Below, one piece after another: positions 2,816 through 20,222 of a DNA stretch of 50,361 nucleotides. Every line of letters starts with the position of its first letter. Position 1 is the stretch's first letter. Source of the DNA: Clostridiales bacterium. GTDB taxonomy: Bacteria; Bacillota; Clostridia; Peptostreptococcales; Natronincolaceae. The notes below the pieces were generated by a model, which saw nothing but the letters and a program-made list of their open reading frames with translations, had not been told where the DNA came from and did not search any database. Both the position numbers and the translations under genes were made by a program. The stretch is taken from contig JAAYPJ010000006.1 of NCBI GenBank assembly GCA_012519835.1, positions 1 to 50,361 of the forward strand, read 5' to 3'.

Positions 2816-2854
2816 ATATTATACACGGTTGTTTCTAATCCTCATCTTTTTATC

Positions 2855-3032
2855 ATGAGATAGCACAACTCAATAAACTGAGATGTTTATTGAGACAGCC
2901 CTATAGCTATTAACCATAAAGCCAGTAAATAGCACCGGGAATACTATCTACTTCGGCAACATCCCCTACCCTTCGGCATCAAAGCTCCCCAAACTCCACC
3001 AAAAGCCGTTGAATATCGCACCTCTACCCCAC
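2855..3032 (-). promoter_or_regulatory. Lysine riboswitch (L box) aptamer
   Basis: The minus-strand RNA follows the known L-box layout: GTAGAGGTGCGA at the 5' end, a central GCCGAAGGG, then TTGCCGAAGTAGATAG, TTTACTGGC, GGGCTGTC, a P5-like hairpin CTCAATAAAC/GTTTATTGAG, and a closing CTATCTCAT. The last segment pairs with the 5' GTGGGGTAG along all nine positions (P1, with G-U pairs). Length is about 178 nt, normal for the class. The order closely resembles the leader of Bacillus subtilis lysC as remembered; no covariance search was run. It precedes the ABC importer, with a terminator in place. Confidence 0.92.
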
Positions 3033-3070
3033 TATAAAGGTGAGGTCCTATTAAATTTGTTATTGTACAT

Positions 3071-4330: not shown

Positions 4331-4374
4331 AACGATTCTTAAACTATTGTTAAACCATTGTTAAACTATTGTTC
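4331..4374. repeat. 11-bp tandem repeat, four units, overlapping the argB stop
   Basis: Four consecutive 11-bp units (AACGATTCTTA, AACTATTGTTA, AACCATTGTTA, AACTATTGTTC) fill the argB-argD gap. The last unit overlaps the first two bases of the argB stop codon (4373-4375). It belongs to the same family as the larger array at 37669-37756. Confidence 0.75.
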
Positions 4375-5227: not shown

Positions 5228-5240
5228 GTTTTCCCTCCTA

Positions 5241-5272
5241 GATCCTTCGCTTCGCCCGGCATGGCATAAAAA
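5241..5272. repeat. Dispersed GATCCTTCGC repeat, partial copy, in the argJ-argB gap
   Basis: GATCCTTCGCTTCGC followed by CCGGCATGGCATAAAAA resembles the fuller copies at 7827-7873, 29876-29983 and 41979-42025. It fills most of the 49-bp gap between argJ and argB. It stays open in the argB frame, giving a false N-terminal extension. Confidence 0.6.
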
Positions 5273-5276
5273 TTGT

Positions 5277-6497: not shown

Positions 6498-6521
6498 ATC
6501 TTTTTCTCCCCTTTAAACCCA

Positions 6522-7562
6522 TTACGGCCATACAGGCGGTTGTTTTAGACCTTCATCAATATCAAAACCAAACATTAAATTCATGTTTTGTACGGCCTGA
6601 CCCGCAGCCCCTTTAACCAGATTATCTATGGCACTTACCACAACAATAGTATTGGTTCTTTCATCCATTTTAAAACCTATATCACAATAATTAGAACCAT
6701 AAACCGCCTTTGTTTGCGGATACTCCCCTTCCTCTAATATCCTTATAAACTGTTGATTTTTATAATAATATTCAAGTGTATCCCTTATTTCCCTCGCTTT
6801 TACCTTTTTATTGTTCGTTAAATAAATAGTACTCAAAATTCCACGTGTCATAGGAGCAAGATGGGGCGTAAATTGCGCCATGACTCTTTTCCCGGCCGCT
6901 GTTGACAGTTCCTGTTCAATTTCCGGTGTATGTCTGTGCGTGCCTATCCCATATGCCCTGAGGTTTTCATTGCACTGTGAAAACAGATTCGCATCTTTGA
7001 CAGATCTGCCTGCACCCGAAACCCCCGATTTCGCATCCACTATTATAATATCACTATCGATAAGTCTCTCTTTTAATAATGGATACAACGGCAAAATAAC
7101 GCTGGTAGGGTAGCAACCCGGATTTGCAACCAAATCTGCTTCCCTAATCCTGTCGGCATAGATTTCGCATAACCCGTATACCGCCTTGACCAACAATTCT
7201 TTTGCCTCATGTTTTACAGTATACCATTCTTCATATGTATCAACATCCCTTAATCTAAAATCAGCTGAAAGATCTATAACCTTTTTGTTTTTTTCCAATA
7301 TCTTTTTTACCAACCCCTGACTCAATCCGTGGGGCAGGGCAATAAAGAATACATCTATTTCATCTAAGTCCTTTTCTAAATTTATAGAAATACATTTATT
7401 ATCAACTATATTTTTAAAATTAGGATAAATTTTGCTATATTCCACGGAGGCATAACTCCTAGAATCCAGAAAACTTATTTCCAGCTCACTGTGGTTAGAC
7501 ACCAGCCTTACCAGCTCTCCCCCCGCATATCCTGTCGCTCCGATAATACCTACTTTAAGCAT
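6522..7562 (-). CDS. argC: N-acetyl-gamma-glutamyl-phosphate reductase
   Basis: This 346-residue NADPH-dependent reductase makes N-acetylglutamate semialdehyde from the acyl phosphate produced by ArgB. It has the Rossmann start VGIIGATGYAGGELVRL and the catalytic cysteine in NPGCYPTS (Cys150). HTPEIEQEL and a later PMTRGI segment are typical of the type-1 family. It is the first gene of argCJBD and follows a promoter that overlaps two ArgR-like operators, so it is probably repressed when arginine is plentiful. Confidence 0.96.
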   Translation of the reverse strand: MLKVGIIGATGYAGGELVRLVSNHSELEISFLDSRSYASVEYSKIYPNFKNIVDNKCISINLEKDLDEIDVFFIALPHGLSQGLVKKILEKNKKVIDLSADFRLRDVDTYEEWYTVKHEAKELLVKAVYGLCEIYADRIREADLVANPGCYPTSVILPLYPLLKERLIDSDIIIVDAKSGVSGAGRSVKDANLFSQCNENLRAYGIGTHRHTPEIEQELSTAAGKRVMAQFTPHLAPMTRGILSTIYLTNNKKVKAREIRDTLEYYYKNQQFIRILEEGEYPQTKAVYGSNYCDIGFKMDERTNTIVVVSAIDNLVKGAAGQAVQNMNLMFGFDIDEGLKQPPVWP

Positions 7563-7635
7563 ATTCGCACCTTCTTTTTTTGTTTGTTAAATGATGTTTC
7601 AATCCAACAATAGAATAAAATTATCCCTGTTTATT

Positions 7636-7669
7636 TTCATAATTATACATCATAATTAATAATTATGCA
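7636..7669 (-). promoter_or_regulatory. Two ArgR-like operators (ARG boxes) over the argC promoter
   Basis: On the minus strand two AT-rich boxes, TGCATAATTATTAA (7656-7669) and TGTATAATTATGAA (7636-7649), resemble the ArgR/AhrC consensus TGAAT-N4-ATTCA. Their starts are 20 bp apart, close to the spacing of paired ARG boxes. CATAATTA-T-TAATTATG is also a perfect palindrome. The boxes cover the -35 and -10 of the promoter. No regulator gene is in the window. Confidence 0.65.
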
Positions 7670-7670
7670 A
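7642..7670 (-). promoter_or_regulatory. argC promoter
   Basis: The minus strand has TTGCAT (7665-7670), 17 bp, then a perfect TATAAT (7642-7647). It lies about 80 bp before argC and downstream of the pyc terminator. Both hexamers fall within the ArgR-like boxes. Confidence 0.8.
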
Positions 7671-7689
7671 TACTCTTTTTATTTTTTTA

Positions 7690-7749
7690 CAAAAAACGAA
7701 CCTATGAAGGGTTCACCTCCTAGCAAAACAAGCAGAATCCTTCATAGGT
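7690..7749 (-). terminator. Rho-independent terminator after pyc
   Basis: On the minus strand an 11-bp perfect stem ACCTATGAAGG/CCTTCATAGGT encloses a loop of about 28 nt and is followed by TCGTTTTTTG. It lies between the pyc stop and the argC promoter, separating the citrate operon from argCJBD. The loop contains AGGAGGTGA, a perfect anti-Shine-Dalgarno complement, but no open frame follows it. Confidence 0.8.
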
Positions 7750-7826
7750 CAAGTCTATTCTGTTCTCCCTTGTATTTGTATGTGTTATCCACATCATAAT
7801 AAAAGAAAACATTATTTTAAAATAGG

Positions 7827-7873
7827 GATCCTTCGCGGGTCAAACCTTATACTGTAGTCTCAGGATGACGAAA
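7827..7873. repeat. Dispersed repeat, about 45 bp
   Basis: The segment begins GATCCTTCGCGGGTCAAA and ends CTCAGGATGACGAAAA. Related copies occur at 29876-29983 (two in tandem), 41979-42025 and, degenerate, 5241-5272. All are written in the same direction on the plus strand and lie between genes. Short repeats of this look, read in reverse as a TCATCCTGAG...GCGAAGGATC pattern, are common in bacterial genomes; their role is unclear. Confidence 0.7.
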
Positions 7874-7887
7874 ATGTAAGGTTTTTA

Positions 7888-10800
7888 TTATTTTTCCTTC
7901 AGTCTAATCAGTAATTCCCCTACCTTTACCTGTTGAGTTTCTCTCACCAATATACTATCTACTATACCTGCTACAGGGGCCGTAATATTAGTTTCCATTT
8001 TCATGGCTTCAAGTAAAATAATACTCTGATTTTTGTCTACTTTCTCTCCTTCTTTTACTAAAATTTTAACCACTACTCCCGGAATAGTAGCACCTATCTC
8101 AAATTTATTTTCCGGGTCCGCCATTTGAGTGAACATTTTTTCATCCGTTCCAATCACTCTGCTCGCTTTATCGAATATTTTTACTTCTCTGCGGTTTCCG
8201 TTCACTTCAAACACTACGGTTCTATTCCCCTCATTATCTAATTTACCGATCTCCTGCAATTTAACAATTAAGGCCTGGCCCTCTGCAATCTCTACTTCAC
8301 AAGTTTCACCTTCATACAAGCCGTGGAAAAATATATCGCTTCCCATTCTACTCAGGTCCCCATATTCATTGATAAAGTCCAGATACCCTTCGTATGTCTT
8401 CGGATAAAGCGCATATGATAATAGATCTTTCCGATTTGGATTCATATTATATTTTTCCTTCAGATGTTTTGCAATAGCATCGAAATCCTCGGGCTCTAAC
8501 AGCTCTCCGGGTCTCACTACTATGGGGGTTTCACCTTTCAAAACTATATCCTGTAATCTTTTAGGAAAACCACCGCTCGGCTGTCCTAACATACCTTTAA
8601 AGTAATCTACAACTGACTCCGGAAAGGTCATGTCTTTTGCTCTCTCGTATATATTTTCAGGATTTAGATCGTTCTGTACCATAAAGATAGCCAAATCTCC
8701 CACTGTTTTGGATGATGGCGTAACCTTTATAATATCGCCCAGCATTTCATTAACTGTTTTGTACATTTCTTTGACCTCATCGAACCTATGCCCCAGACCA
8801 AAACTGTCCACCTGCGGTTTTAAGTTAGAATACTGGCCACCCGGAATTTCATATTTGTAAATTTCTGCTGTTGCAGATTTCAAATCAGATTCAAATTGTT
8901 CAAAAAGCGGCCTCACAGCACTCCAATAATGGGAAAGTTTTTGTAGATCATCTGTGTTCATTTTAGTATCCCTGGAGGTATTCTCCAGTGCCGCAACAAC
9001 CGAATTTAAGCATGGTTGGCTGGTAAGCCCGGACATACTGCTGATAGCAACATCCGCAATATCCACTCCCGCGTCTACCGCCATCAACACAGTAGCAACG
9101 CCGTTACCGGTAGTATCATGGGTATGGAGATGTATAGGAATGGAAATCTCGTCTTTTAATGCTTTAATCAGTTTTTGTGAAGCATAGGGCTTCAAAAGAG
9201 CAGACATATCTTTTACGCCCAGTATATGTGCACCTGTTTTCTCGATTTCTTTGGCCAAATTCACATAGTATTGTAAGGTATATTTATCCCTTTTTGTGTC
9301 TAAAATATCGCCGGTATAACACATACATGCTTCCGCAACCTTGCCGGTTTTTAACACCTCATCAATAGCTACTTCCATGCCTTTTAACCAGTTTAAAGAA
9401 TCAAAAATCCTGAATACATCTATGCCGGTCTCTGCAGATTCACGGATAAATTCCCTTATTACATTGTCGGGATAATTTTTATAACCCACCGCATTGCTGC
9501 TTCTCAAAAGCATTTGGAACAAGATATTGGGTATCCTTTCACGCAATATTTCTATACGCTCCCAGGGAGATTCCCCTAGAAAACTATAAGATGCATCAAA
9601 GGTGGCGCCACCCCACATTTCTATGGAGAAAAAATCACCCGCCAGAACAGAAGTAGCCTTGGATATCCTTGCCATATCTATAGTCCTCAGTCTTGTCGCC
9701 ATTAGAGACTGGTGGGCGTCTCTCATAGTAGTATCGGTCAACAATAATTTGTCCTGATTTTTAATCCACCTCACCAATCCTTCGGGACCCTCATTATCCA
9801 ATATTTGTTTTGTTCCGTATTGATTTTCGGGCCTTGTTACATATGGAACCACCGGTATATCATATTCCTTTTTTATTCCTTTTGTTTCGTTGACCACCTT
9901 TTCCCCGATATATCTAAGCAATTTCAATTCCCTATCACTTTGAGGTTTAATATCAAAAAGTTCGGGATTATTTTCTATGAAGCCGGTATTGGCTTCCCCC
10001 CGTATGAAGGTTTCATGGTTTAATACATTGACCAAAAATCCGACATTGGTTTTAACCCCACTGATTTTGGACTCTGTCAGGGAACGAATCGATTTTCTGA
10101 TAGCATCTTCAAAGGTTCTTGATGAAGATGTCACTTTTACTAATAAGTTGTCATAATAGGGGCCGATTTCAGAACCTGTAAAACCACTGCCCCCGTCCAA
10201 TCTTATCCCGGGTCCGGAGCTTGTTCTATATACATCAACCCTTCCTATACTTGGTAGAAATTCGTTGCTTGCATCCTCACAGGTTATTCTGCATTCTATG
10301 GCATATCCCCTGGGGATTATATCTTTTTGGGATTTAATCCCTATCTTTGGACTGTCTAGGGAATAGCCTTGAGCTATCAGAATTTGATTCTGAACAATGT
10401 CAATACCGGTCACCACTTCCGTAATTGTATGTTCTACCTGTATTCTAGGATTCACCTCAATAAAATAATGATTTCCATAGGCGTCCAGTAAAAACTCCAC
10501 CGTTCCGGCATTTTTATAATTGACAGCCCTTGCTATTTTTAAGGCATCTTCACATATTTCCTCCCTTTTTTCATCGGACAGGCATATGGCCGGGGTAAAT
10601 TCTATCAGCTTCTGATGCCTCCTCTGTACAGAACAATCCCTTTCATAAAGATGTACTATGTTACCATACTCATCTCCAAGTACCTGCACCTCTATATGTT
10701 TGGGTGCCTTTAGGTATTTCTCAACAAAAATATCATCATTACCGAAGGCTTTTTTTGCCTCACTCTTGGCACTATTAAAGGCCTCCACCAGTTTTTCTTC

Positions 10801-11337
10801 CGATCTTACAACCCGCATGCCCCTTCCGCCACCACCGGTGGCAGCCTTTAGCATGACCGGATACCCGCAATGATCAGCAAATTCTATCAGCTCTTTTTCG
10901 GAAGTAATGGGTTTTTCTACACCGGGTATTGTCGGCACATTTGCTTCCCTCGCTATCAATTTAGACCTGATCTTGTCTCCTAACTTTTTGATCGTCTTAT
11001 AAGAGGGACCAATAAACACGAGCCCGGCTTTTTCACATTTTTGTGCAAACTCCGGATTTTCGGATAAAAATCCGTATCCGGGATGAATAGCATCTACACC
11101 CTTTTTCAATGCTAAACTGATTATTTCCTCAATATTTAAATATGCTTCTATAGGGCCCTTATTTCTTCCTATCAAGTAGGACTCATCCGCCTTTGTTCTA
11201 AAAAGAGAACGTTGATCCTCATTGGAATAAACCGCCACGGTTCTGATACCCAATTCACGACAAGCCCTGAAGACCCTGATAGCAATTTCTCCCCTATTTG
11301 CTACCAATATACGTTTAAATTTCTTTATGCCCATCAT
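7888..11337 (-). CDS. pyc: Pyruvate carboxylase
   Basis: This single-chain biotin enzyme of about 1149 residues carboxylates pyruvate to oxaloacetate with ATP and bicarbonate. From the N terminus it has a biotin carboxylase domain (RILVANRGEIAIRVFRA, GGGGRGMRVV, EVNPRIQVEHT; about 5-455), a carboxyltransferase domain (LLTDTTMRDAHQSL, HLHTHDTTGNG; about 530-800), a linking domain, and a biotinyl domain with EAMKMET whose Lys1113 should carry biotin. The frame runs on to 11403, but AAGGGGGGGTG sits just before the ATG at 11337, and that start gives the usual length. It lies 129 bp after the isocitrate dehydrogenase gene. It would supply oxaloacetate to the citrate synthase upstream. Pyruvate carboxylase of Listeria and Lactococcus is inhibited by c-di-AMP as protein; whether this one is cannot be told. 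Confidence 0.97.
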   Translation of the reverse strand: MMGIKKFKRILVANRGEIAIRVFRACRELGIRTVAVYSNEDQRSLFRTKADESYLIGRNKGPIEAYLNIEEIISLALKKGVDAIHPGYGFLSENPEFAQKCEKAGLVFIGPSYKTIKKLGDKIRSKLIAREANVPTIPGVEKPITSEKELIEFADHCGYPVMLKAATGGGGRGMRVVRSEEKLVEAFNSAKSEAKKAFGNDDIFVEKYLKAPKHIEVQVLGDEYGNIVHLYERDCSVQRRHQKLIEFTPAICLSDEKREEICEDALKIARAVNYKNAGTVEFLLDAYGNHYFIEVNPRIQVEHTITEVVTGIDIVQNQILIAQGYSLDSPKIGIKSQKDIIPRGYAIECRITCEDASNEFLPSIGRVDVYRTSSGPGIRLDGGSGFTGSEIGPYYDNLLVKVTSSSRTFEDAIRKSIRSLTESKISGVKTNVGFLVNVLNHETFIRGEANTGFIENNPELFDIKPQSDRELKLLRYIGEKVVNETKGIKKEYDIPVVPYVTRPENQYGTKQILDNEGPEGLVRWIKNQDKLLLTDTTMRDAHQSLMATRLRTIDMARISKATSVLAGDFFSIEMWGGATFDASYSFLGESPWERIEILRERIPNILFQMLLRSSNAVGYKNYPDNVIREFIRESAETGIDVFRIFDSLNWLKGMEVAIDEVLKTGKVAEACMCYTGDILDTKRDKYTLQYYVNLAKEIEKTGAHILGVKDMSALLKPYASQKLIKALKDEISIPIHLHTHDTTGNGVATVLMAVDAGVDIADVAISSMSGLTSQPCLNSVVAALENTSRDTKMNTDDLQKLSHYWSAVRPLFEQFESDLKSATAEIYKYEIPGGQYSNLKPQVDSFGLGHRFDEVKEMYKTVNEMLGDIIKVTPSSKTVGDLAIFMVQNDLNPENIYERAKDMTFPESVVDYFKGMLGQPSGGFPKRLQDIVLKGETPIVVRPGELLEPEDFDAIAKHLKEKYNMNPNRKDLLSYALYPKTYEGYLDFINEYGDLSRMGSDIFFHGLYEGETCEVEIAEGQALIVKLQEIGKLDNEGNRTVVFEVNGNRREVKIFDKASRVIGTDEKMFTQMADPENKFEIGATIPGVVVKILVKEGEKVDKNQSIILLEAMKMETNITAPVAGIVDSILVRETQQVKVGELLIRLKEK

Positions 11338-11466
11338 TTTCACCCCCCCTTTCGCAGAAACAAAAAGATGTTTCAAAACCGCTGAAAAAATCCTGTGTTG
11401 CACTATTTAAAATCCAACAAAAATTATACTTTTTCAGTAACCCTAAAACATCCCCCGCCCTTATAA

Positions 11467-12465
11467 TTACATGTTTGTTATAACTGCATCTGTAAATTCA
11501 GTAGTGGACAATTTACCACCTATATCTATTGTACGGCTTTCACTATTTTTTAGCGTATCTCCCAAGGCCTTTTCAATTTTAAGCGCTGCCTCAGCCTCAT
11601 CAATATATTTCAACATCATTGCTCCTGAAAGTATGGCCGATATGGGGTTTGCTATATTCTTACCCGCAATATCGGGGGCTGAACCATGAACAGGCTCGAA
11701 TATGGCAAAATCGTCCCCTATATTGCCACTGGGGGCGATTCCCAATCCCCCAATCAGTCCGGCACCCAGATCAGATAAAATATCCCCATATAAATTTGGT
11801 GCTACGATAACCGAAAAATTCTTCGGGTTCATAACCATTTTCATTGCCATAGCGTCCACAATTATATCCTCAAATTGAATATCTTTGTAATTATCAGCCA
11901 CCTCTTTTCCCGTCTTCAGAAAAAGTCCGTCTGAAAGTTTCATGATATTGGCCTTGTGCGTAAGAGTTACCTTTTGTCTTTTCTCCCGCCTTGCAAGTTC
12001 AAACGCAAAATTGCATATTTTAAGACTGGCAGCCCTGCTTATTATTTTAATGCTCTGTGCTATGTTATCGTTAACCATAAATTCTATACCTGTGTATAAG
12101 CCTTCTGTATTTTCTCTTACAACGACAAAATCTAAATCCTTATATAGAGAATCTATGCCATCAAATGATTTTATAGGTCTTATGTTGGCAAATAATTTAA
12201 AATGCTGCCTCAACGCGATATTTATACTTCTGAAACCGGTGCCAATCGGTGTTGTAAGCGGTCCCTTTAAAGCGATTTTATTTTTTTCTATGCTCTTTAT
12301 TGTTTCATCCGGCAATGGATTGCCATACTTTTCATATGTTGAAAATCCTGCTTCCTGTCTGTCCCATGCTATTTTAACACCTGTTGCTTCTATTATTTTA
12401 ACTGTTGCATCTATAATATCTTTTCCTATTCCATCTCCATCGATTAAGGTGATTGTCCTGTTCAT
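11467..12465 (-). CDS. Isocitrate dehydrogenase, isocitrate/isopropylmalate dehydrogenase family
   Basis: This 332-residue beta-decarboxylating dehydrogenase has LIDGDGIGKDI at the N terminus, LKGPLTTPIGTGFRSINIALRQ, the substrate-binding arginines in LFANIRPIKSF, VRENTEGLYTG, a KANIMKLSDGLFLK segment, and EPVHGSAPDIAGKNIANP near the C terminus. The length fits the short bacterial NAD-type enzyme. The family also includes 3-isopropylmalate and homoisocitrate dehydrogenases. Position directly after citrate synthase and aconitase argues for isocitrate as substrate, giving 2-oxoglutarate. The ribosome site CAGGAGGTAAAAT fixes the start. A 137-bp gap rich in repeats separates it from the aconitase gene. 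Confidence 0.9.
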   Translation of the reverse strand: MNRTITLIDGDGIGKDIIDATVKIIEATGVKIAWDRQEAGFSTYEKYGNPLPDETIKSIEKNKIALKGPLTTPIGTGFRSINIALRQHFKLFANIRPIKSFDGIDSLYKDLDFVVVRENTEGLYTGIEFMVNDNIAQSIKIISRAASLKICNFAFELARREKRQKVTLTHKANIMKLSDGLFLKTGKEVADNYKDIQFEDIIVDAMAMKMVMNPKNFSVIVAPNLYGDILSDLGAGLIGGLGIAPSGNIGDDFAIFEPVHGSAPDIAGKNIANPISAILSGAMMLKYIDEAEAALKIEKALGDTLKNSESRTIDIGGKLSTTEFTDAVITNM

Positions 12466-12554
12466 ATTTTACCTCCTGTGATTTGTAGTTAGTCAGGGGT
12501 TAGGGGTCAAAGAATCTCCTTTCCCACAAAGATAGAAATCAGTTAGCCAGGGGT

Positions 12555-12626
12555 CCAACCAACTGACTAACTGATTGACTAACTGTCCAACTATCTAACT
12601 GACTAATCGGTCAACTGTCCGACTGT
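12555..12626. repeat. Degenerate 8-bp tandem repeat reaching into the aconitase 3' end
   Basis: About eight or nine units of an octamer near CTAACTGA (variants CCAACTGA, CTAACTGA, CCAACTAT, TCAACTGT, CCGACTGT) run from the gap into the aconitase gene. The last codons of the gene (V-G-Q-L-T-D-stop) are encoded by it. A related array occurs at 27198-27266. Just upstream, 12486-12555 has two imperfect copies of a TTAGYCAGGGGT segment. Confidence 0.7.
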
Positions 12627-14534
12627 ATTTAAAAGTCCCCCGTTCCTTAGTATATCAGCATGCCTTTTTGTTATATCTAAATTCATGATATATTGTAAAT
12701 TTTTTGTTTTGTTTAAAACTATCATTTCTCCGGAATCTATACCGGAAAGAACATTCTTGATCTCCAACTCATCAAAAACATCTATTGTCAAATAATCATC
12801 ACTATTTCTGAATGTTAAAGGCATAATTCCATTGTTTATAAGATTATTCTTATGAATTCTCGCAAAGGATTTAGCCATAACAGCTTTTATGCCCAAATAT
12901 AGCGGGGCTAATGCCGCATGTTCGCGACTGGACCCTTGCCCATAATTTAAACCGCCAACTATTATGCCGCCACCATATTTTTTAGCGTTTGCTGCAAAGT
13001 CCTTATCAATTTGATTGAAACAAAATTCCGACAGATAAGGTATGTTTGACCTGTATGGAAGCAAATGCGCATTTGAAGGCATAATATGGTCGGTAGTTAT
13101 TCCATCCCCTACTTTTATTAAAGTTTTCCCCGTAATTGAATTTTCTAACGGTTTGTTTTTAGGAAACGGTTTTATGTTTGGTCCGCGTATTACTTCTACG
13201 TCTTCGCCTTCCTTGGCCGGTTCGATTATTAAATTATCGTTTATTAAAAATGTGCTCGGAATTTCTATGTTCAGATCCACATCCCTATCAAAATCCTCTG
13301 CCGATGCAATGTAACCCTTTATAGCAGACACAGCCGCTATTTCGGGACTTGCTAAGTAAACGTCCGCTGTTTCCGTACCACAACGTCCTTTGAAATTCCT
13401 ATTGAATGTTCTCAATGAAACCCCACCGGTGCTTGGCGCTTGCCCCATGCCTATACATGGCCCGCAACCGCTTTCCAATATTCTTCCACCTGCGCCTATA
13501 ATTTTGGCTAATGCCCCATTTTCGGATAACATGGTGAGTACCTGTTTAGAACCGGGGGATACTACCAAGGAGATATTTTCATTTATAGTCCTTCCGTCTA
13601 ATATATTTGCAACTTTCATTAAATCCACAAAAGATGAATTTGTACAACTTCCGATAGCCACCTGAGTAAGCTTAGTGCCTCTCACTTCCCTTGCAGGAAC
13701 CACTGCATCGGGAGAATGAGGACAGGCAATCATCGGTTCCAATTTATCTAAATCTACATCTACAATCTCATCATATACAGCATCTTCATCTGCCGATAAT
13801 GGTGTGTAATCCTTCTCCCTTCCCTGTGCTTTCAGAAACGCCAATGTGTTCTCATCGGATGGAAAAATTGAGGTTGTAGCCCCAAGCTCCGCTCCCATAT
13901 TGGTTATTGTGCCTCTCTCCGGCACAGAAAGACATTTCACACCTTCCCCGGCATATTCAAATACTTTATTTACCCCGCCTGCAACCGTGCACTTTCTGAG
14001 TACCTCCAAAATTATGTCTTTGGCGCTGGTATAGCCACTTAGTTTACCTTTTAAATTTACTCTGACAACCTTGGGGGTTTGTATATAGTATTCCCCACCT
14101 GCCATAGCTACGGCCACATCCAGTCCCCCTGCTCCTATTGCAATCATACCTAACCCACCACAAGTTGGCGTATGGCTATCGGAGCCAAGCAATGTATCGC
14201 CCGGCACTCCAAACCTCTCCAAATGTACCTGATGGCATATGCCGTTACCCGGTTTTGAAAAATATATGCCATGTTTCTTTGCAATAGTTTGGATATATAA
14301 ATGATCATCCGCATTTTCAGGACCCGACTGTAACATATTATGATCTATATAGGCTACAGACAGCTTTGTCTTTACCCTGTCTACATTCATGGCTTCAAAT
14401 TGTAAATATGCCATAGTACCTGTTGAATCCTGGGTCAACGTTTGGTCTATTTTTATCCCTATCTCCTCACCAATACCATATTCACCGCTGACTAAATGGT
14501 TTTTTAATATCTTTTCCGTCAAAGTCATTCCCAC
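12603..14534 (-). CDS. Aconitate hydratase
   Basis: This [4Fe-4S] hydro-lyase of about 643 residues interconverts citrate and isocitrate. The three cluster cysteines are visible in IGSCTNSS (Cys297) and GCGPCIGMG (Cys357, Cys360). LLGSDSHTPTCGGLG (about 115-130) and the swivel-domain motif GGLNYGQGSSREHAAL are also present. It is the short, mitochondrial-like aconitase type. The open frame begins at 14543, but GGAAGAGG lies eight bases before an in-frame GTG at 14534 that gives the N terminus MGMTLTEKIL, a family-typical start. An ATG at 14528 is a second choice. The last six residues come from an 8-bp repeat array. It lies 15 bp after the citrate synthase gene. Confidence 0.93.
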   Translation of the reverse strand: MGMTLTEKILKNHLVSGEYGIGEEIGIKIDQTLTQDSTGTMAYLQFEAMNVDRVKTKLSVAYIDHNMLQSGPENADDHLYIQTIAKKHGIYFSKPGNGICHQVHLERFGVPGDTLLGSDSHTPTCGGLGMIAIGAGGLDVAVAMAGGEYYIQTPKVVRVNLKGKLSGYTSAKDIILEVLRKCTVAGGVNKVFEYAGEGVKCLSVPERGTITNMGAELGATTSIFPSDENTLAFLKAQGREKDYTPLSADEDAVYDEIVDVDLDKLEPMIACPHSPDAVVPAREVRGTKLTQVAIGSCTNSSFVDLMKVANILDGRTINENISLVVSPGSKQVLTMLSENGALAKIIGAGGRILESGCGPCIGMGQAPSTGGVSLRTFNRNFKGRCGTETADVYLASPEIAAVSAIKGYIASAEDFDRDVDLNIEIPSTFLINDNLIIEPAKEGEDVEVIRGPNIKPFPKNKPLENSITGKTLIKVGDGITTDHIMPSNAHLLPYRSNIPYLSEFCFNQIDKDFAANAKKYGGGIIVGGLNYGQGSSREHAALAPLYLGIKAVMAKSFARIHKNNLINNGIMPLTFRNSDDYLTIDVFDELEIKNVLSGIDSGEMIVLNKTKNLQYIMNLDITKRHADILRNGGLLNTVGQLTD

Positions 14535-14549
14535 TGAAAGCACCTCTTC

Positions 14550-15896
14550 CTAAACTGAACTTTCTTCATATATCTCATGTTCGGCATTTATATATTTGTC
14601 TGAGATTTCAACCATTTCTTGTACCGTAATATTGGTTGTCCTTCCTTTTTCATATTCTTCATCTATCCATTCCTTGATGGGAACCAGCCTTTCATCATGT
14701 TTTGTGAGTTTATCATCCCCCTGCTTGTTAAAATAACTGTTTATAAAATATGCGATACCGGCAATTCCCGAATAGTTATTGATGGCCACCAGAGGTGGTC
14801 TTCCGAGTATTTTACCCGTATCAAAGCTATTATATATCTCTTCATCTTTTAGCAAACCGTCTGCGTGAATCCCGGCCTTTGTTACGTTAAAATCTGAACC
14901 CACAAAAGGCGTTTTAGGCGGAATCTTGTAATCCAACTCACTTTCAAAAAACTTGGCTAAATCACTGATTACTTCCAGGTTTACACCCTTCGTGGTTCCT
15001 TTTAGTTGTGCATATTCTATAATCATAGCCTCTAAGGGGCAGTTTCCTACTCTCTCACCTACACCGAATAGAGTAGCATTAACCGAGGACCCTCCATATA
15101 ACCAAGAAGTCGCCGAATTGGGCACCACAGCGTGATAATCATTATGCCCGTGCCATTCTATACATTCGGACGGAACCCCTGCATGATTTCTGAGACCATG
15201 TATAAGCATTGGCACCGACCTGGGCAATTCTACTCCATTGTAAGATATTCCAATACCCAGGGTATCACAGGCCCTGATCTTAACCTTCGCATTCCCCTGT
15301 TTCGCCAACTCCATTAAATTTTGTGCCAGGGGCACAACAAATCCAAAGAAGTCCGCCCTGGTAATATCTTCAAAATGACACCTTGGGGTAATACCATTTT
15401 CCAGCGCAGCTTCAGCTATATCTAAATACATTTCCATAGCTTCTTTCCGCGATTTTCCGAGTTTGTTAAATATATGATAATCAGAACAACTCGTCAATAT
15501 TCCGGTTTCTTTTACTCCCATTTCCTTGACCAGTTTAAAATCCTCTTTATGTGCTCTTATCCATGAAGTAACCTCCGGAAAATCGTATCCCCTTTCCATA
15601 CATTGGCGTACAGCGTTTCTGTCCTTCTCATCGTATAGAAAAAATTCGGTCTGTCTTATAATTCCGGAACCGTTATCAAGTTCATGAAGCATATCGAAAA
15701 TCCTTACCATTTGCTCCGTGGTCATGGATGTCATGGATTGTTGCCCGTCTCTGAAAGTGGTATCGGTTATCCATATGTCTTCAGGCAATTCCATAGGCAA
15801 CTGTATGTTGTTAAATATTGTTTTTGGTATTTCATCATAAGGAAAGATTTCCTTATACAAATTTGGCTCCTTAACATCAATAACCCTGTGTTTCAT
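14550..15896 (-). CDS. Re-type citrate synthase (HMGL/isopropylmalate synthase family)
   Basis: This 448-residue protein has the metal-dependent TIM-barrel fold of isopropylmalate and homocitrate synthases, with the active-site segment ITDTTFRDGQQS (about 43-54) and EWHGHNDYHAVVPN carrying the metal-binding histidines. The sequence resembles the Re-citrate synthase described in Clostridium kluyveri as remembered, and it is followed directly by aconitase and isocitrate dehydrogenase. It would condense acetyl-CoA with oxaloacetate in strict anaerobes. Start: ATG after GGGGGGAGATTATA. It is the first gene after the c-di-AMP riboswitch. Homocitrate synthase is the main alternative, but no lysine or nif genes accompany it. 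Confidence 0.88.
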   Translation of the reverse strand: MKHRVIDVKEPNLYKEIFPYDEIPKTIFNNIQLPMELPEDIWITDTTFRDGQQSMTSMTTEQMVRIFDMLHELDNGSGIIRQTEFFLYDEKDRNAVRQCMERGYDFPEVTSWIRAHKEDFKLVKEMGVKETGILTSCSDYHIFNKLGKSRKEAMEMYLDIAEAALENGITPRCHFEDITRADFFGFVVPLAQNLMELAKQGNAKVKIRACDTLGIGISYNGVELPRSVPMLIHGLRNHAGVPSECIEWHGHNDYHAVVPNSATSWLYGGSSVNATLFGVGERVGNCPLEAMIIEYAQLKGTTKGVNLEVISDLAKFFESELDYKIPPKTPFVGSDFNVTKAGIHADGLLKDEEIYNSFDTGKILGRPPLVAINNYSGIAGIAYFINSYFNKQGDDKLTKHDERLVPIKEWIDEEYEKGRTTNITVQEMVEISDKYINAEHEIYEESSV

Positions 15897-16021
15897 TATA
15901 ATCTCCCCCCTTTAAATATGAAAGATAATATATCATATCTTGCATTAATTAAATATAGTTTATTTTTTGAATCTAGCTCACCGCGAGTCTTTGGTTGGAA
16001 TATAGTTGTTTAATATCGAAT

Positions 16022-16050
16022 ATTTTAACACATATCTTTTCGGAATTCAA
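16022..16050 (-). promoter_or_regulatory. Candidate internal promoter downstream of the c-di-AMP riboswitch
   Basis: The minus strand has TTGAAT (16045-16050), 17 bp, then TAAAAT (16022-16027). It lies after the riboswitch terminator and about 125 bp before the citrate synthase start. If used, it would give basal expression that escapes the riboswitch. Confidence 0.45.
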
Positions 16051-16090
16051 GCATAATTTGCAAGTTTTTTTATAAGAGTTTCATAACTAG

Positions 16091-16121
16091 GATTAAAAAA
16101 GACTATGGGGTTCCATAGTCT
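16091..16121 (-). terminator. Terminator of the c-di-AMP riboswitch
   Basis: On the minus strand GACTATGG pairs with CCATAGTC around a short AACC loop, followed by TTTTTT. It lies about 25 nt after the aptamer, where the expression platform of an OFF switch is expected. Confidence 0.88.
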
Positions 16122-16145
16122 AAACATAAACATTTTCCCCTTTTA

Positions 16146-16248
16146 CGCTTACGAAGTTAGCTGCCGGGTTGGGACTAAAGGTAGCCCCTCCTAAAAATAG
16201 GATTCACCCCAAAAAAATGGTTCCCCCGCTTCTTTGCAGAATTCAGCG
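16146..16248 (-). promoter_or_regulatory. c-di-AMP riboswitch (ydaO/yuaA class)
   Basis: The minus-strand RNA contains the conserved segments of this class in order: TCGCTGAATTCTGC, GCGGGGGAACCA, TGGGGTGAATCC, AGGGGCTACCTTTAGTCC, AACCCGGCAGCTAAC and TTCGTAAGCG. The end segments CGCT and AGCG close P1. The Bacillus subtilis ydaO leader has the same blocks (GCGGGGGACCCA, CCGAACCCGTCAGCTAACCTCGTAAGCG). In described cases c-di-AMP binding promotes termination, and a terminator follows here. It leads into the Re-citrate synthase, aconitase, isocitrate dehydrogenase and probably pyc genes. Confidence 0.92.
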
Positions 16249-16309
16249 ATATTAACCGCATTATAGTATTTTTAAATTTAAGGTGAGATGCAACTGTTCT
16301 ATTAATCAT

Positions 16310-16338
16310 ATCATAATTACATGCATACTTACAAGCAA
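16310..16338 (-). promoter_or_regulatory. Candidate promoter of the riboswitch-controlled citrate operon
   Basis: The minus strand has TTGCTT (16333-16338), 17 bp, then TATGAT (16310-16315), about 60 bp before the aptamer. The -35 is weak. No terminator is visible between the PHP gene stop (16365) and this site, so read-through is possible. Confidence 0.5.
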
Positions 16339-16364
16339 AAAGCATTTTTTCGCTAAATTAAATT

Positions 16365-17132
16365 TTATTTTACATAGTAGGGCTTCCTTCCTTTATAATA
16401 TACAGGCTTCAAATCACATACATAAACAATTTCTTTCGCTATATCAAAGTTTACACCTATATCCTCCGGCCTATGAGCATCTGACCCTATAGTGACATAT
16501 TTTCCTCCGAGTTCCCTGAACCTTTTAAGAATTATAATAAAATTGTCTACCGTGTTTTTATCATGGATCCACCTGGTGTTTATTTCTATTGCTTTATCGG
16601 CGATAAGGAGTTCTTTGAGGATTTCATCTATTAAATCGGGGAAATCTTTATAATAAAGACCTTTATCTTTATATATTGAATATCTCGTTATATAATCCAT
16701 GTGTGCCAGGGAATCAAAAAAATCGTGATGTTTAACCAACAGGAGCATATTCTTCAGGTATTCTTCATAGGCTTGTTCCTTGCTTTTCCCCTCATAATAT
16801 TCCTTATAATAAATATCTATCCCGTTGACAACGTGAATGGCACCTATAATAAAATCAAAGGGGTAGTTGTCCTTGAGTTCCCTGATTTCTTTGAGGGAAT
16901 CATCTCTAAAGCCTATTTCAACACCGAGGAGGAGTTTCTCACTCCTGTATATTTCGTATTCATTGAAATATTCATCAGGATCAAATATGAATTCATTCGG
17001 TATGTGATGTTTATAATCCATATGGTCGGTTATTATAAGACCAATTCCCAATTTGTTTGAAACCCTGATCGCATCCCTTATATCCATTACAGCATCAGTA
17101 GAAAAATTTGTGTGAACATGACAATCATACAT
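16365..17132 (-). CDS. PHP-domain phosphatase (histidinol-phosphatase HisJ-like)
   Basis: This 255-residue PHP-fold metal-dependent phosphoesterase has the first metal motif CHVHTNFS (His5, His7), then ITDHMDYKHH, the metal-binding EIGF (about 72-75), GAIHVV and a late SDAHRPEDIG. These match the HisJ-type histidinol-phosphatase group, which removes phosphate from histidinol phosphate. No other his genes are nearby, so the substrate is uncertain and a general phosphoesterase is possible. The ribosome site GGGGGG precedes the ATG. The gene is read toward the c-di-AMP riboswitch. Confidence 0.82.
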   Translation of the reverse strand: MYDCHVHTNFSTDAVMDIRDAIRVSNKLGIGLIITDHMDYKHHIPNEFIFDPDEYFNEYEIYRSEKLLLGVEIGFRDDSLKEIRELKDNYPFDFIIGAIHVVNGIDIYYKEYYEGKSKEQAYEEYLKNMLLLVKHHDFFDSLAHMDYITRYSIYKDKGLYYKDFPDLIDEILKELLIADKAIEINTRWIHDKNTVDNFIIILKRFRELGGKYVTIGSDAHRPEDIGVNFDIAKEIVYVCDLKPVYYKGRKPYYVK

Positions 17133-17200
17133 TTTATGCCCCCCATATAGAAATTATATTGTTACAATAGAATTCTAACATATATATATATAATAATTAA

Positions 17201-17233
17201 GGCGTCAAAAGATAAATGTTTCGTTTTGACGCC
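17201..17233. repeat. Perfect 10-bp inverted repeat between divergent genes
   Basis: GGCGTCAAAA and TTTTGACGCC flank a 13-bp spacer in the 213-bp gap between the PHP gene and the EamA gene. No T tract follows on either strand, so it is not an ordinary terminator. The left arm, read on the minus strand, includes TTGACG, which lies 17-18 bp before a TATATA-like -10 for the PHP gene. It may be an operator. Confidence 0.55.
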
Positions 17234-17282
17234 CATATTATAGAACTGAAAACAGAAAATTTGCCCTTGGTATCCTTATCAC

Positions 17283-17312
17283 TTGATTATATTATACAAA
17301 ATATATTATACT
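17283..17312 (+). promoter_or_regulatory. Candidate promoter of the EamA transporter gene
   Basis: TTGATT (17283-17288), an 18-bp AT-rich spacer and TATACT (17307-17312) lie about 35 bp before the start codon. Confidence 0.5.
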
Positions 17313-17345
17313 GAAAATATATAATGACTAAGGGGGACAGTTTTC

Positions 17346-18326
17346 ATGGAAAACACTGATCATGATAAAAAATCGGTTTATATTGCAGCCACATTATACG
17401 CTCTTATTACAGGCCTTTCTTTTTTATTCACCAAAATAGCATTGCTTACCGCCGGGCCTCTGGATATTTTGGCCCATAGATTCACCACAGCATTTGTATC
17501 TATATTGATACTTGTATTGTTCGGGTTGGTAAAGATAGATTATGATGCGGAAAAAATTAAAAAAATGCTTCTATTGGCTCTATTGTATCCGATGGCATTT
17601 TTTGCTTTCCAAACCTTCGGACTGCAATATGCAACCTCTTTGGAGGCAGGCATACTGTCGGCATCCTCTCCAATAATCACACTGCTTTTAGCAACAGTTC
17701 TGTTGAATGAACAGACAAATCTGTTACAAAAAATTTCTATAGTCGCATCAGTATCAGGTGTAATATATATTACACTGATGAAAAGCTCATCCTTTGAAAT
17801 AAGCGGAATAAAAGGCATAACACTCCTTCTTCTATCCGCATTATCTATTTCCGGATATCATGTTATGGCAAGAATGTTGGCCAGAAACTTTTCCAAAATA
17901 GAACTCAGTTTTATTATGTCTTTAAGCGGTTTTTTGTTTTTTAATGTTATAGCAATAAGTAAACACCTGATCAACGGGGATATAGACACATTTTTGTTGC
18001 CGCTAAGAAATGTTCAATTTGTTTTAGCTATGGTTTATTTAGGTGTGCTGGCATTTTTGGTTTCATCTTTATCTATCAACTATATTTTATCTAAAATAGA
18101 GGCCGCAAAAATGAGTGTATTCTCAAATCTGGGAACCGTCATCACTATCGTTGCGGGCGTTGTATTTCTTAAGGAAAAAATATTCTACTACCATATTATC
18201 GGTTCTGTTTTTATAGTCGGCGGTGTTATAGGAACAAACTTTTTGGATAAAATAGGCCCAAGCAAATCGGATCAAAAAAATGGGGAAAAACCGCCAGTCT
18301 CAGATGACATTTGTAAGCACTGTTGA
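17346..18326 (+). CDS. EamA/DMT-family transporter (RhaT-like)
   Basis: This 326-residue integral membrane protein has about ten hydrophobic helices in two EamA repeats (roughly 12-145 and 155-300), the layout of drug/metabolite exporters. A conserved KIALLTAGPLDILAHRF segment follows helix 1, and the second repeat ends with VVFLKEKIFYYHIIGS, the usual LGE-like turn. The C-terminal tail is charged. The ribosome site is AAGGGGGA. It is transcribed away from the PHP gene and meets htpG head-on, 18 bp apart. The substrate cannot be inferred; amino acids or metabolites are typical. Confidence 0.9.
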   Translation: MENTDHDKKSVYIAATLYALITGLSFLFTKIALLTAGPLDILAHRFTTAFVSILILVLFGLVKIDYDAEKIKKMLLLALLYPMAFFAFQTFGLQYATSLEAGILSASSPIITLLLATVLLNEQTNLLQKISIVASVSGVIYITLMKSSSFEISGIKGITLLLLSALSISGYHVMARMLARNFSKIELSFIMSLSGFLFFNVIAISKHLINGDIDTFLLPLRNVQFVLAMVYLGVLAFLVSSLSINYILSKIEAAKMSVFSNLGTVITIVAGVVFLKEKIFYYHIIGSVFIVGGVIGTNFLDKIGPSKSDQKNGEKPPVSDDICKHC

Positions 18327-18344
18327 CACATCCGATACACTGCC

Positions 18345-20222
18345 CTAAATCATCAATCTGCAAATATCATTGCTAAACTCTACCGGGTTGTTTACCGACA
18401 ATCCTTCAATAAGCAGGGCCTGGTTATAGAGTAGTTTGGTAAATAATTCAAATCTATCTTCATCGTTTTTATATGCATCTTCCAACGCCTTGAATACTTC
18501 ATGGTTTTTATTTACCTCTAATACCTTTTCCGCTTTAATTTTTTGGTTATCCGGCATTACACTCAATACTTTTTCCATTTCAATTGAAATTTCACCTTCA
18601 TTTATTAAACATACGGGGTGAGATTTTAATCTTTTGGATGTCCTTACGTCTTTTACTTTGTCGGATAATATTGTTTTCATTTTTTCAAATAATTCCTTGT
18701 TGGTATCTTTTTCAGCGTTTTCATCTTTGTCTTCTTTATCTTCGATACCCAGATCACTGCCTGATACGGATCTGAATTCTTTTTCCTTATAGGAGTTCAA
18801 CATTTTCAGTGCAAATTCATCAACGTCATCGGTCAAATAAAGAATTTCAAATCCTTTTTCCGACAACAGTTCTGTTTGCGGTAAAACAGCTAACCTCTCA
18901 TTAGATTCACCTGCGGCATAGTATATATATTTTTGTTCTTCTTTCATCCTTAAAATATATTCATCCAAAGTTACTAATTTCTTTTCTTTTGAAGAGTAAA
19001 ACATCAGTAAATCCTGTAAAACGTCTTTGTTGTTTCCAAAATCTCTATATACCCCATACTTTAACTGTCTGCCAAAGGAATTATAAAATTTTTCGTATTT
19101 ATCTCTATCTGCTTTTAATAAATTTGATAATTCACTTTTAATTCTATTTTTAATGTTTCTTGCAATCAATTTAAGCTGTCTGTCGTGTTGCAGCATTTCC
19201 CTGGAGATATTCAAGGACAAGTCCTCCGAATCTACCATTCCCTTTATAAAGCTGAAATAATCCGGAATTAAATCCGCACATTTGTTCATAATAAGCACAC
19301 CACTGGAATACAGTTCCAGCCCCTTTTCATATTCTGCCGTATAATAATTGAAAGGGATTTGTTCCGGAATAAATAAAATCGCATTATATCTTACAGCACC
19401 GTCAGCACTTATATGAATATGTTTGATTGGTTTGTCAAATCCGTATCTTTTTTCAAAATAAAAATTAGTATAATCCTCTTCTGTAAGTTCGTTTTTATTC
19501 TTTCTCCAGATCGGTACCATGCTGTTGATTGTCTCTTCTTCAATATAGTCTTCGTATTCTTCTTTACTACCTTCTTTTAATCTCGATTTGGTAACATCCA
19601 TTTTTATCGGATATCTGATAAAATCGGAATATTTTTTTATGATACTTCGCAATCTGTATTCCTCTAAAAATTCATCATAGTCTTCATCTTCCGTACTTTC
19701 TTTAATTTTCAAAATGATTTCCGTACCGACCGTATCTTTGTCCCATTCTTCAATAGTGTATCCATCAACACCTTTAGATTCCCATCTGTATCCCTGTCCG
19801 CTATCTAAGGATTTGCTTATCACAGTAACCGTATCTGCTACCATAAATGCGGAATAAAAACCGACACCGAACTGACCTATTATGTCATAACCGTCTTCAA
19901 TTTCTATTTCCTCTTTAAATGCTAAGGTTCCGCTTTTTGCAATAATCCCCAGATTGTCTTCTAATTCATCCTTGGTCATGCCTATGCCGGTATCGATAAC
20001 CCTTAATGTCCTGTCATCCTTGTCCGCGATAATTTTTATATAGTAATCATCCTTGTTGAATTGTAAAGTCTCATCGGTCAGTGCCCTATAGTATATTTTA
20101 TCAATGGCATCACTGGCATTTGAAATTAACTCCCTCAAAAATATTTCTTTATGGGTATAAATTGAGTTAATCACTAAATCCAGCAGTCTTTTAGATTCCG
20201 CTTTAAATTCCTTTATTTCCAC
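18345..20222 (-). CDS. htpG: Chaperone HtpG (Hsp90)
   Basis: This bacterial Hsp90 of about 625 residues has the GHKL ATPase domain at the N terminus ([39 protein letters not shown]), a middle domain with LNISREMLQ, and a C-terminal dimer domain. An acidic run (about 490-510) precedes the C-terminal domain. The frame opens at 20276, inside the CIRCE element, but AAAGGAGAG lies six bases before an in-frame GTG at 20222, which gives the family-typical start [20 protein letters not shown] operator and promoter lie directly upstream, so HrcA control by heat or unfolded protein is likely. Confidence 0.96.

What the first reader, a model, noticed from the sequence alone, without database searches (positions are those of the whole stretch)
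14550..16338. c-di-AMP riboswitch controls the first steps of 2-oxoglutarate synthesis
A clear ydaO/yuaA aptamer with a terminator leads into Re-citrate synthase, aconitase, isocitrate dehydrogenase and probably pyruvate carboxylase. Known ydaO riboswitches mostly sit before cell-wall, osmolyte and K+ genes. Separately, c-di-AMP is known to inhibit pyruvate carboxylase protein in Listeria and Lactococcus. Here the same messenger would throttle the whole pyruvate-to-2-oxoglutarate branch at the RNA level, a second route to the same end. Glutamate is the main counter-ion of K+, so the link to osmotic control makes sense.
Basis: partly seen in the sequence, partly recalled or inferred. Interest (0 to 1): 0.8.

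Follow-up and report, generated by a model that had tools for sequence, protein, structure and literature searches.

The report
c-di-AMP switch on citrate synthase operon
An RNA sensor for the osmotic-stress messenger c-di-AMP sits before the genes that feed carbon into glutamate; here it looks like an add-on booster upstream of the operon's older promoter, and the same kind of sensor stands before citrate synthase genes in other bacterial lineages too.

Summary
A full-length c-di-AMP (ydaO) aptamer (RF00379, 106.9 bits, gathering score 38) lies at 16258-16131(-), with a 9-bp terminator at 16121-16100, before Re-citrate synthase, aconitase, isocitrate dehydrogenase and pyruvate carboxylase. 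The sister genome has the same order. One correction: the operon's old promoter (16065-16022), shared with relatives lacking the riboswitch, lies downstream of the terminator (28.6 bits, 0 of 5000 resampled controls). c-di-AMP can therefore gate only transcripts from an extra upstream promoter. That promoter-aptamer-terminator cassette is a paralogue of the one before an opine-dehydrogenase/B12-enzyme operon in the same genome. I read it as an osmotic booster, not a throttle on the branch. Pyruvate carboxylase lacks the known c-di-AMP pocket residues. The association recurs: a separate Re-citrate synthase clade has it in 7 of 8 members (in 4 of the 7 behind a glutamate 2,3-aminomutase-like gene), and one genus has it directly before the unrelated Si-citrate synthase in 4 of 4 genomes opened. 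So c-di-AMP riboswitches were probably recruited to citrate synthase at least three times. My literature searches showed no such report, but Nelson 2013 was not readable here. All functional steps are inferred from sequence.

The parts
16305..16334 (-). P1: promoter-like TTGTAA-18-TATGAT (extended TG), inferred start of the riboswitch transcript
   Evidence: 9 of 12 consensus match (such matches are no commoner than in shuffles of 5000-18500, 42 found against 47.7 expected); 26 of 30 positions identical in the sister genome; similar by eye to the sequence upstream of the paralogous opine-DH cassette (printed)
16131..16258 (-). c-di-AMP (ydaO/yuaA) riboswitch aptamer, RF00379
   Evidence: 106.9 bits, gathering 38; 118 of 130 aligned columns identical in G001
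16100..16121 (-). intrinsic terminator of the riboswitch (9 bp, then T6)
   Evidence: with its T-run 27 of 28 positions identical in G001; about -12 kcal/mol
16022..16065 (-). P2: ancestral promoter of the Re-citrate synthase operon (ACTTGCA box, TTGAAT-17-TAAAAT with TG), downstream of the terminator
   Evidence: 28.6 bits with a matrix from 11 upstream stretches without a riboswitch before RCS, 0 of 5000 first-order resamples (best 13.6), only site over 8 bits in the window; 39 of 44 positions identical in G001 against 30 of 66 columns just downstream; only exact match of the pattern in the genome
15940..15944 (-). second TGCAA box, 48 nt before the start codon
   Evidence: a TGCAA-type box also lies about 20-60 nt before the start in the sister genome and the 18 near relatives looked at; CTTGCAA/TTGCAAG 34 in 20 upstream stretches against 1.6 +/- 1.4 in 300 resampled sets (motif first noticed in these same sequences)
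14550..15896 (-). Re-citrate synthase (HMGL-like, relative of homocitrate/isopropylmalate synthase), 448 aa
   Evidence: 93% identical in G001 and 79% in G006; followed by aconitase and IDH in 17 of the 18 loci L028-L045, the other (L038) ending at its contig
12603..14543 (-). aconitate hydratase, 646 aa
   Evidence: NF005558 970.5 bits, cut-off 612
11467..12465 (-). isocitrate dehydrogenase, 332 aa
   Evidence: PRK08997 439.8 bits, below its cut-off 510; PF00180 367.4 bits
7888..11403 (-). pyruvate carboxylase, 1171 aa; residues at the known c-di-AMP pocket replaced
   Evidence: PRK12999 1755.4 bits; Y740, Q743, L773, M774 where L. lactis PC has Q712, Y715, S745, G746 (first two read against the L. 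lactis chain, last two through the S. aureus chain)

Best explanation
The element is a complete 'promoter - c-di-AMP aptamer - terminator' cassette, a paralogue of the one before the opine-dehydrogenase/B12-enzyme operon of the same genome. In the ancestor of this genus it came to lie upstream of the existing promoter (P2) of the Re-citrate synthase - aconitase - isocitrate dehydrogenase - pyruvate carboxylase operon. At high c-di-AMP (no osmotic or K+ stress) the aptamer is bound, P1 transcripts stop at 16100, and the operon lives on P2 alone. When c-di-AMP falls, P1 transcripts read through and add to P2, giving more oxaloacetate, citrate and 2-oxoglutarate for glutamate and glutamate-derived osmolytes. 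It is therefore an osmotic booster of 2-oxoglutarate supply. Shown from sequence: aptamer, terminator, P2 homology, cassette paralogy, recurrence of the association elsewhere. Inferred: promoter activity, ligand binding, direction of control, effect on glutamate, direction of copying.
For: Aptamer and terminator. P2 box shared with relatives that have no riboswitch before RCS and preserved together with the cassette while the DNA after it drifted. Aptamers of the two loci in both genomes form one clade among 54 from the order (support 0.997), and the printed terminators and upstream sequences are alike. The opine-DH/B12 pair lies after a ydaO in two other genomes of the order (G119, G130), and in G435 and G183 a ydaO lies about 1.2 kb before the B12 gene, so that locus is the likelier donor. 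Two diadenylate-cyclase-domain genes in the genome. A c-di-AMP riboswitch followed by a terminator stops transcription with ligand in vitro before Dehalobacter ablA (PMC9337991 passages). Functional sense: a second Re-CS clade has ydaO in 7 of 8 members, with a glutamate 2,3-aminomutase-like gene in between in 4 of those 7; Si-citrate synthase follows ydaO in 4 of 4 opened genomes of one genus.
Against: No expression or binding data. P1 is only a 9-of-12 consensus match. A pairing of aptamer core with terminator (the antiterminator) was no better than in resampled cores: in eight leaders 33 to 170 of 500 controls were as stable, 170 for the window and 107 for G001. A 137-nt gap with a hairpin separates aconitase from IDH, and the sister genome has an extra small ORF there, so coupling of IDH and PC to the leader is less certain than that of RCS and aconitase. 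The genome also has a Si-citrate synthase on another contig, so RCS is not the only entry to citrate. In the samples searched only two genomes (G000, G001) show the present arrangement; G006, with RCS 79% identical and the same four genes, has no RF00379 match at all.
Confidence: 0.62

Rival explanations
1. One reading: the riboswitch is the master gate. P2 is a relic, nearly all transcripts start at P1, and c-di-AMP throttles the whole pyruvate-to-2-oxoglutarate branch.
For: In other lineages with ydaO-citrate synthase there is hardly room for a second promoter: start codons lie about 80-100 nt (G241, G419) or about 110-130 nt (G332, G389, G290, G454) past the aptamer, with the terminator between.
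Against: In the window P2 is conserved at 39 of 44 positions between two genomes whose following 66 alignment columns keep only 30, and it matches the promoter block of relatives without a riboswitch before RCS. The genome also has a Si-citrate synthase.
Confidence: 0.2
2. Passive copy: the cassette landed here by duplication and has little effect on the operon; its transcript ends at the terminator, perhaps insulating P2 from the upstream PHP gene.
For: The cassette is a paralogue of another locus and P2 can presumably serve the operon alone, as in relatives.
Against: P1, aptamer and terminator are kept in both genomes at 87-96% identity while neighbouring spacer DNA has 45-67%. Separate lineages show the same riboswitch on citrate synthases, which argues for a useful link.
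Confidence: 0.13
3. The 448-aa synthase is not Re-citrate synthase but homocitrate, citramalate or isopropylmalate synthase, so the operon serves another pathway.
For: Its best NCBIfam matches bear those names, all 20 matches below their cut-offs (best 147.2 bits against 517).
Against: It is followed by aconitase and isocitrate dehydrogenase in 17 of the 18 nearest named loci. Re-citrate synthases are known to be misannotated as homocitrate or isopropylmalate synthase (PMC12016533 passages), and the Acetivibrio lineage that matches at 61-62% includes C. thermocellum (this naming is recalled), for which labelling shows Re-CS activity (PMC6115520 passages).
Confidence: 0.05

Closest known systems
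c-di-AMP (ydaO/yuaA) riboswitch, RF00379
   Same: Aptamer sequence and fold at full model length, terminator directly after it.
   Different: Targets named in the passages I saw are K+, amino-acid and other transporters, cell-wall remodelling and osmotic-response genes (PMC3766115; PMC7266159). Here the target is the pyruvate-to-2-oxoglutarate operon, and the operon keeps its own promoter behind the terminator.
Tandem Na+/c-di-AMP riboswitch before ablA in Dehalobacter sp. CF (PMC9337991)
   Same: c-di-AMP riboswitch with terminator that represses an osmolyte-synthesis gene; the paper also names eam (beta-glutamate) among Na+ riboswitch targets (passages).
   Different: There the osmolyte enzyme itself is the target; here it is the supply of its precursor. 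In G190, G217, G267 and G158 a glutamate 2,3-aminomutase-like gene and Re-CS follow one c-di-AMP riboswitch.
c-di-AMP control of pyruvate carboxylase protein (Listeria, L. lactis; DarB in B. subtilis)
   Same: Same messenger, same branch of metabolism (PMC10243994 section 19; PMC8822347 passages).
   Different: That is allosteric or protein-protein; here it is RNA-level, and the PC lacks the pocket residues.

Membership tests
c-di-AMP riboswitch RF00379 | covariance score above the gathering score, full length | tested here: met
   106.9 bits against 38, model positions 1-134
c-di-AMP riboswitch RF00379 | expression platform directly downstream (terminator) | tested here: met
   9-bp hairpin plus T6, 9 nt after the aptamer, conserved in the sister genome
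c-di-AMP riboswitch RF00379 | competing antiterminator pairing between aptamer and terminator | tested here: inconclusive
   duplex -13.9 (window) and -16.6 kcal/mol (G001), but 170 and 107 of 500 resampled cores do as well
c-di-AMP riboswitch RF00379 | binds c-di-AMP | not testable with these tools
   needs in-line probing; the genome has two DAC-domain genes
Re-citrate synthase (C. kluyveri type) | HMGL-like protein outside the IPMS/homocitrate/citramalate equivalogs | tested here: met
   PF00682; all 20 NCBIfam matches below cut-off
Re-citrate synthase (C. kluyveri type) | Re-face citrate synthase activity | not testable with these tools
   enzyme assay needed; supported by linkage to aconitase and IDH
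c-di-AMP-inhibited pyruvate carboxylase | pocket residues Q712, Y715 and small S745, G746 (L. lactis numbering) | tested here: not met
   Y740, Q743, L773, M774 in the window protein (residues from PMC10243994 section 19)
glutamate 2,3-aminomutase (gene between ydaO and Re-CS in G190 and G158) | TIGR04368 score over the curated cut-off | tested here: not met
   630.9 and 620.0 bits against a cut-off of 650; still by far the best equivalog model (lysine 2,3-aminomutase 435.6 and 433.0), hence 'like' in this report; the genes of G217 and G267 were not scanned

The most novel reading that the evidence does not exclude
Bacteria of the clostridial class have repeatedly put the committed step into 2-oxoglutarate and glutamate under c-di-AMP riboswitches, using whichever citrate synthase they own (Re-type twice, Si-type once), as the precursor-supply arm of an RNA-controlled osmolyte programme. 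In the window's genus the programme is completed by a second copy of the same switch on an opine-dehydrogenase/B12-enzyme operon that would make a so far unknown, glutamate-derived osmolyte.
Probability: 0.4. Interest if true: 0.78.

Novelty: new variant of a known kind. Interest (0 to 1): 0.62.

Why it matters
c-di-AMP is known to influence oxaloacetate and glutamate supply through proteins (pyruvate carboxylase itself, or DarB). Finding the RNA receptor of the same messenger on citrate synthase genes of two unrelated families, in separate lineages and in four genomes together with a glutamate 2,3-aminomutase-like gene, suggests that coupling carbon entry into glutamate to osmotic state is a recurring demand that evolution meets with different parts. 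It makes a clear test possible: does falling c-di-AMP raise citrate synthase mRNA and glutamate or beta-glutamate pools in anaerobes? The window's version also shows a way in which a riboswitch can be recruited without disturbing old control: a copy of the whole promoter-aptamer-terminator cassette upstream of the existing promoter.

Tried and rejected
Antiterminator: a pairing of the aptamer core with the terminator looked convincing by energy (-15.8 and -17.5 kcal/mol), but resampled aptamer cores do as well in 33 to 170 of 500 controls over eight leaders, so it is not claimed. In one of the eight (G419) the script picked a hairpin that is probably not the terminator.

Idea that the ydaO-RCS link is unique to this genus: it looked so from the 80 best-matching named loci (only L028, the sister genome, has one immediately upstream; L043 and L045 have one 4-5 kb away on the other strand) and from the order survey (61 listed riboswitches in 33 of 148 genomes, RCS downstream in 2). 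The class survey overturned it.

Idea that PC is a c-di-AMP target: rejected on pocket residues. Two other ydaO loci have PC-like tblastn hits: L145, 36% identity over 464 aligned residues to the carboxyltransferase half, about 2.6 kb after the aptamer with a cell-wall-type gene next to the riboswitch; L143, 26%, about 3 kb after, probably carbamoyl-phosphate synthase (recalled from the neighbouring gene's sequence). Neither was counted; L145 was not followed up.

R1 hit in L260 (17.5 bits, E 0.09) taken as chance. Promoter consensus scans alone were not used as evidence (42 found, 47.7 expected).

Limits of the counts: the class riboswitch search scored at most 8 candidates per genome and cut its match list; the order search scored at most 20; the Si-CS list was cut too, and searches were compared by eye. 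The 84 upstream stretches were shorter than 3 kb where contigs end (for example L186 781, L224 1180, L216 1441, L245 1765, L201 1778, L218 2067, L199 2216 bases in all). All such counts are lower bounds. G158 has a second RCS (L216) without a ydaO in the 1 kb available. Downstream DNA in the order survey was 1.5 kb for some family loci and up to 5 kb for the others. The 11 training sites of the P2 matrix were picked by eye and rescored leaving each out; of 81 loci 79 had enough upstream DNA, and 63 of them, L030-L036 included, do not reach 8 bits. The RCS tree uses only the first 140 residues.

Literature: the searches listed no paper whose title or shown abstract start reports a c-di-AMP riboswitch before citrate synthase. 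The papers holding all the words were judged from the listing, except PMC8822347 (passages) and PMC12593503 (passages). Nelson 2013, the paper most likely to list such genes, is not held and its supplement was not seen.
Full report
Observation. The window carries RF00379 at 16258-16131 on the - strand (106.9 bits, gathering 38, full length) followed by a 9-bp hairpin with T6 at 16121-16100. Downstream on the same strand lie a 448-aa HMGL-like synthase, aconitase, isocitrate dehydrogenase and pyruvate carboxylase. The synthase matches 20 NCBIfam models, all under their cut-offs. It is followed by aconitase and IDH in 17 of the 18 loci L028-L045 (L038 ends at its contig). Literature passages say that Re-citrate synthase is often misnamed homocitrate or isopropylmalate synthase (PMC12016533) and that the C. 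thermocellum homologue, 61% identical to the C. kluyveri enzyme, accompanies a Re activity seen by labelling (PMC6115520). I accept Re-citrate synthase (RCS). The whole genome (G000, 1.63 Mb, 159 contigs) has two RF00379 elements: this one and one at contig C110. It has two diadenylate-cyclase-domain genes. The sister genome G001 has two RF00379 elements as well, in the same two contexts. Its 14,120-base contig appears to be JAAZJW010000291.1, 'Clostridiales bacterium isolate AS21ysBPME_83' (same length and 93% RCS identity).

A second promoter behind the terminator. Upstream of RCS in relatives that have no riboswitch there lies a gap-free 44-nt block: an ACTTGCA box, TTG at the -35 position and TAnAAT at -10. 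A matrix from 11 such sites (none from this genus) scores 28.6 bits at window 16065-16022. None of 5000 first-order resamples of the leader reached it (best 13.6), and no other place in the window scored over 8 bits. The exact pattern occurs once in the genome; with up to two mismatches there are 6 matches, against 5 for the reversed control. Of the other 68 loci tested, five also exceed 8 bits (L028, L051, L053, L067, L080) and 63 do not, L030-L036 among them. Between G000 and G001 the identity is 17/30 before P1, 26/30 for P1, 42/46 up to the aptamer, 118/130 for the aptamer, 27/28 for the terminator, 23/35 for the spacer, 39/44 for P2, then 30/66 and 42/63 for the rest of the leader. CTTGCAA/TTGCAAG boxes occur 34 times in 20 RCS upstream stretches, against 1.6 +/- 1.4 in 300 resampled sets (the motif was first noticed in these same sequences). 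So the operon's old, probably regulated promoter survives 35 nt beyond the riboswitch terminator. My reading is that both promoters work.

Where the cassette came from. In a tree of 54 aptamers from the order (61 listed, less six further copies close by and G062), the RCS and C110 copies of both genomes form one clade (support 0.997; RCS copies together 0.748); the printed terminators and upstream sequences are also alike. The C110 copy precedes an octopine-dehydrogenase-family protein (PF02317; closest solved relative N-(1-D-carboxylethyl)-L-norvaline dehydrogenase, 291 bits) and a B12-binding protein with a weak methylaspartate-mutase E match (23.0 bits, below the cut-off of 26.6). The same pair follows ydaO in G119 and G130. 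In G435 and G183 the B12 gene lies about 1.2 kb after a ydaO, as expected if the dehydrogenase is between; those two were not opened (17 of 382 genomes have the B12 gene). In the order sample RCS follows ydaO only in G000 and G001 (61 listed riboswitches in 33 of 148 genomes). The C110 operon is thus the likelier donor; the direction of copying is inference.

Recurrence. Among 391 genomes of the class, 113 have an RF00379 match (111 over the cut-off) and 83 have RCS. I fetched the upstream DNA of all 84 listed RCS places outside G000. A model of the order's aptamers (R1) finds ydaO upstream on the same strand in 7 of 84 (70-95 bits), all seven confirmed by Rfam (93.2-102.3 bits). In G241 and G419 RCS starts about 80-100 nt after the aptamer with a terminator between; in G165 about 330 nt after; in G190, G217, G267 and G158 one gene intervenes. 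For G190 and G158 that gene's best equivalog model is glutamate 2,3-aminomutase (630.9 and 620.0 bits, cut-off 650); G217 and G267 have the like by the start of the sequence. In a tree of 166 RCS N-termini these seven fall in one clade of eight (support 0.989). The eighth (G488) has RCS near a contig end and a ydaO followed by an aminomutase-like gene on another contig end. The window's pair lies elsewhere, among relatives without the riboswitch. That is two origins on RCS. By rough estimate (two ydaO per 2.5 Mb, 3 kb, one strand) chance would give about 0.1 among 84.

The unrelated enzyme. Comparing by eye shows ydaO 240 nt before the PF00285 match in G332. I opened the four genomes of that genus listed with a riboswitch (G290, G332, G389, G454). 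In 4 of 4 the first gene after an RF00379 aptamer (94.4-108.5 bits) and its terminator-like hairpin is Si-citrate synthase (NF010635 652.5 bits, cut-off 426, for G332). A second riboswitch of G454 precedes other genes (L273), and the rest of the 20 loci opened there mostly precede other kinds of gene; L279, L288 and L286 have an aminomutase-like gene. Re- and Si-citrate synthase have no significant homology (PMC6115520 passage), so this is a third recruitment to the same reaction.

Pyruvate carboxylase. Q712 and Y715 line the L. lactis pocket and the small S745, G746 give room; S. aureus PC, with Lys and Gln at 745/746, is not inhibited (PMC10243994 section 19). The window protein has Tyr740, Gln743, Leu773 and Met774 there. 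Direct inhibition is not expected.

Mechanism. A c-di-AMP riboswitch with terminator before ablA stops transcription with ligand in vitro, and high c-di-AMP is taken to signal absence of osmotic distress (PMC9337991 passages). By analogy, low c-di-AMP lets P1 transcripts run into RCS and adds to P2. In B. subtilis low K+ raises the need for glutamate (PMC8822347 passages), so more 2-oxoglutarate is the sensible output. A long hairpin with a T-run visible in the PC-argC gap suggests that the unit ends before argC (sequence printed; hairpin judged by eye). The weak points: no expression data; no antiterminator better than controls; an acn-icd gap with its own hairpin; a Si-citrate synthase elsewhere in the genome; G006 keeps the four genes without any riboswitch match.

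Verdict. Real and well observed. Novelty: a known riboswitch class in a new regulatory setting (dual promoter, paralogous cassette), within a recurrent c-di-AMP/citrate-synthase link that the searches did not show in print, with Nelson 2013 unread.

Noticed in passing
L108:321-3082 (G000:C110), L003; also G119, G130: c-di-AMP riboswitch before an opine-dehydrogenase-family gene and a B12-binding gene that matches no NCBIfam model: a possible unknown osmolyte pathway.
   Followed up: partly
L183, L188, L200, L234, L279, L286, L288: c-di-AMP riboswitch before glutamate 2,3-aminomutase-like genes (beta-glutamate would be the product), followed by Re-citrate synthase in four of the seven loci.
   Followed up: partly
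15897-16246 (-) and RCS leaders L027-L045: TTGCAA-type boxes strongly enriched before Re-citrate synthase genes (34 against 1.6 expected), one before the -35 of P2 and one about 20-60 nt before the start codon: probably the operator of an unidentified regulator.
   Followed up: partly
2853-3034 (-): Lysine riboswitch RF00168 (92.1 bits) before ORF 1766-2677, which begins like a lipoprotein solute-binding protein (sequence start printed; family not searched).
   Followed up: no
12466-12602; L110 acn-icd gap: The sister genome has an extra ORF of roughly 120 aa (looks like a four-helix-bundle protein, recalled) between aconitase and IDH, flanked by short GTCAGTTGG / CTGACTAACT repeats; the window has similar repeats without the ORF.
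   Followed up: no
4373-7562 (-): argC, argJ, argB follow the operon on the same strand after a long hairpin with a T-run in the PC-argC gap (sequence); argC, argJ and part of argB are also beside PC in G001.
   Followed up: partly
L289 (G000:C98:3-1139): The genome also has a Si-citrate synthase (PF00285, 371.9 bits) at the very end of a contig.
   Followed up: partly
L132-L134, L136, L137, L163, L170: Order-wide, ydaO often precedes a 209-211 aa protein that looks like a GNAT acetyltransferase (by eye), in five of these loci behind two aptamers in tandem; its role is unknown to me.
   Followed up: no
L145:2646-4085: A 479-aa ORF 36% identical to the carboxyltransferase half of pyruvate carboxylase lies about 2.6 kb after a ydaO in G058, behind a cell-wall-type gene.
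   Followed up: no
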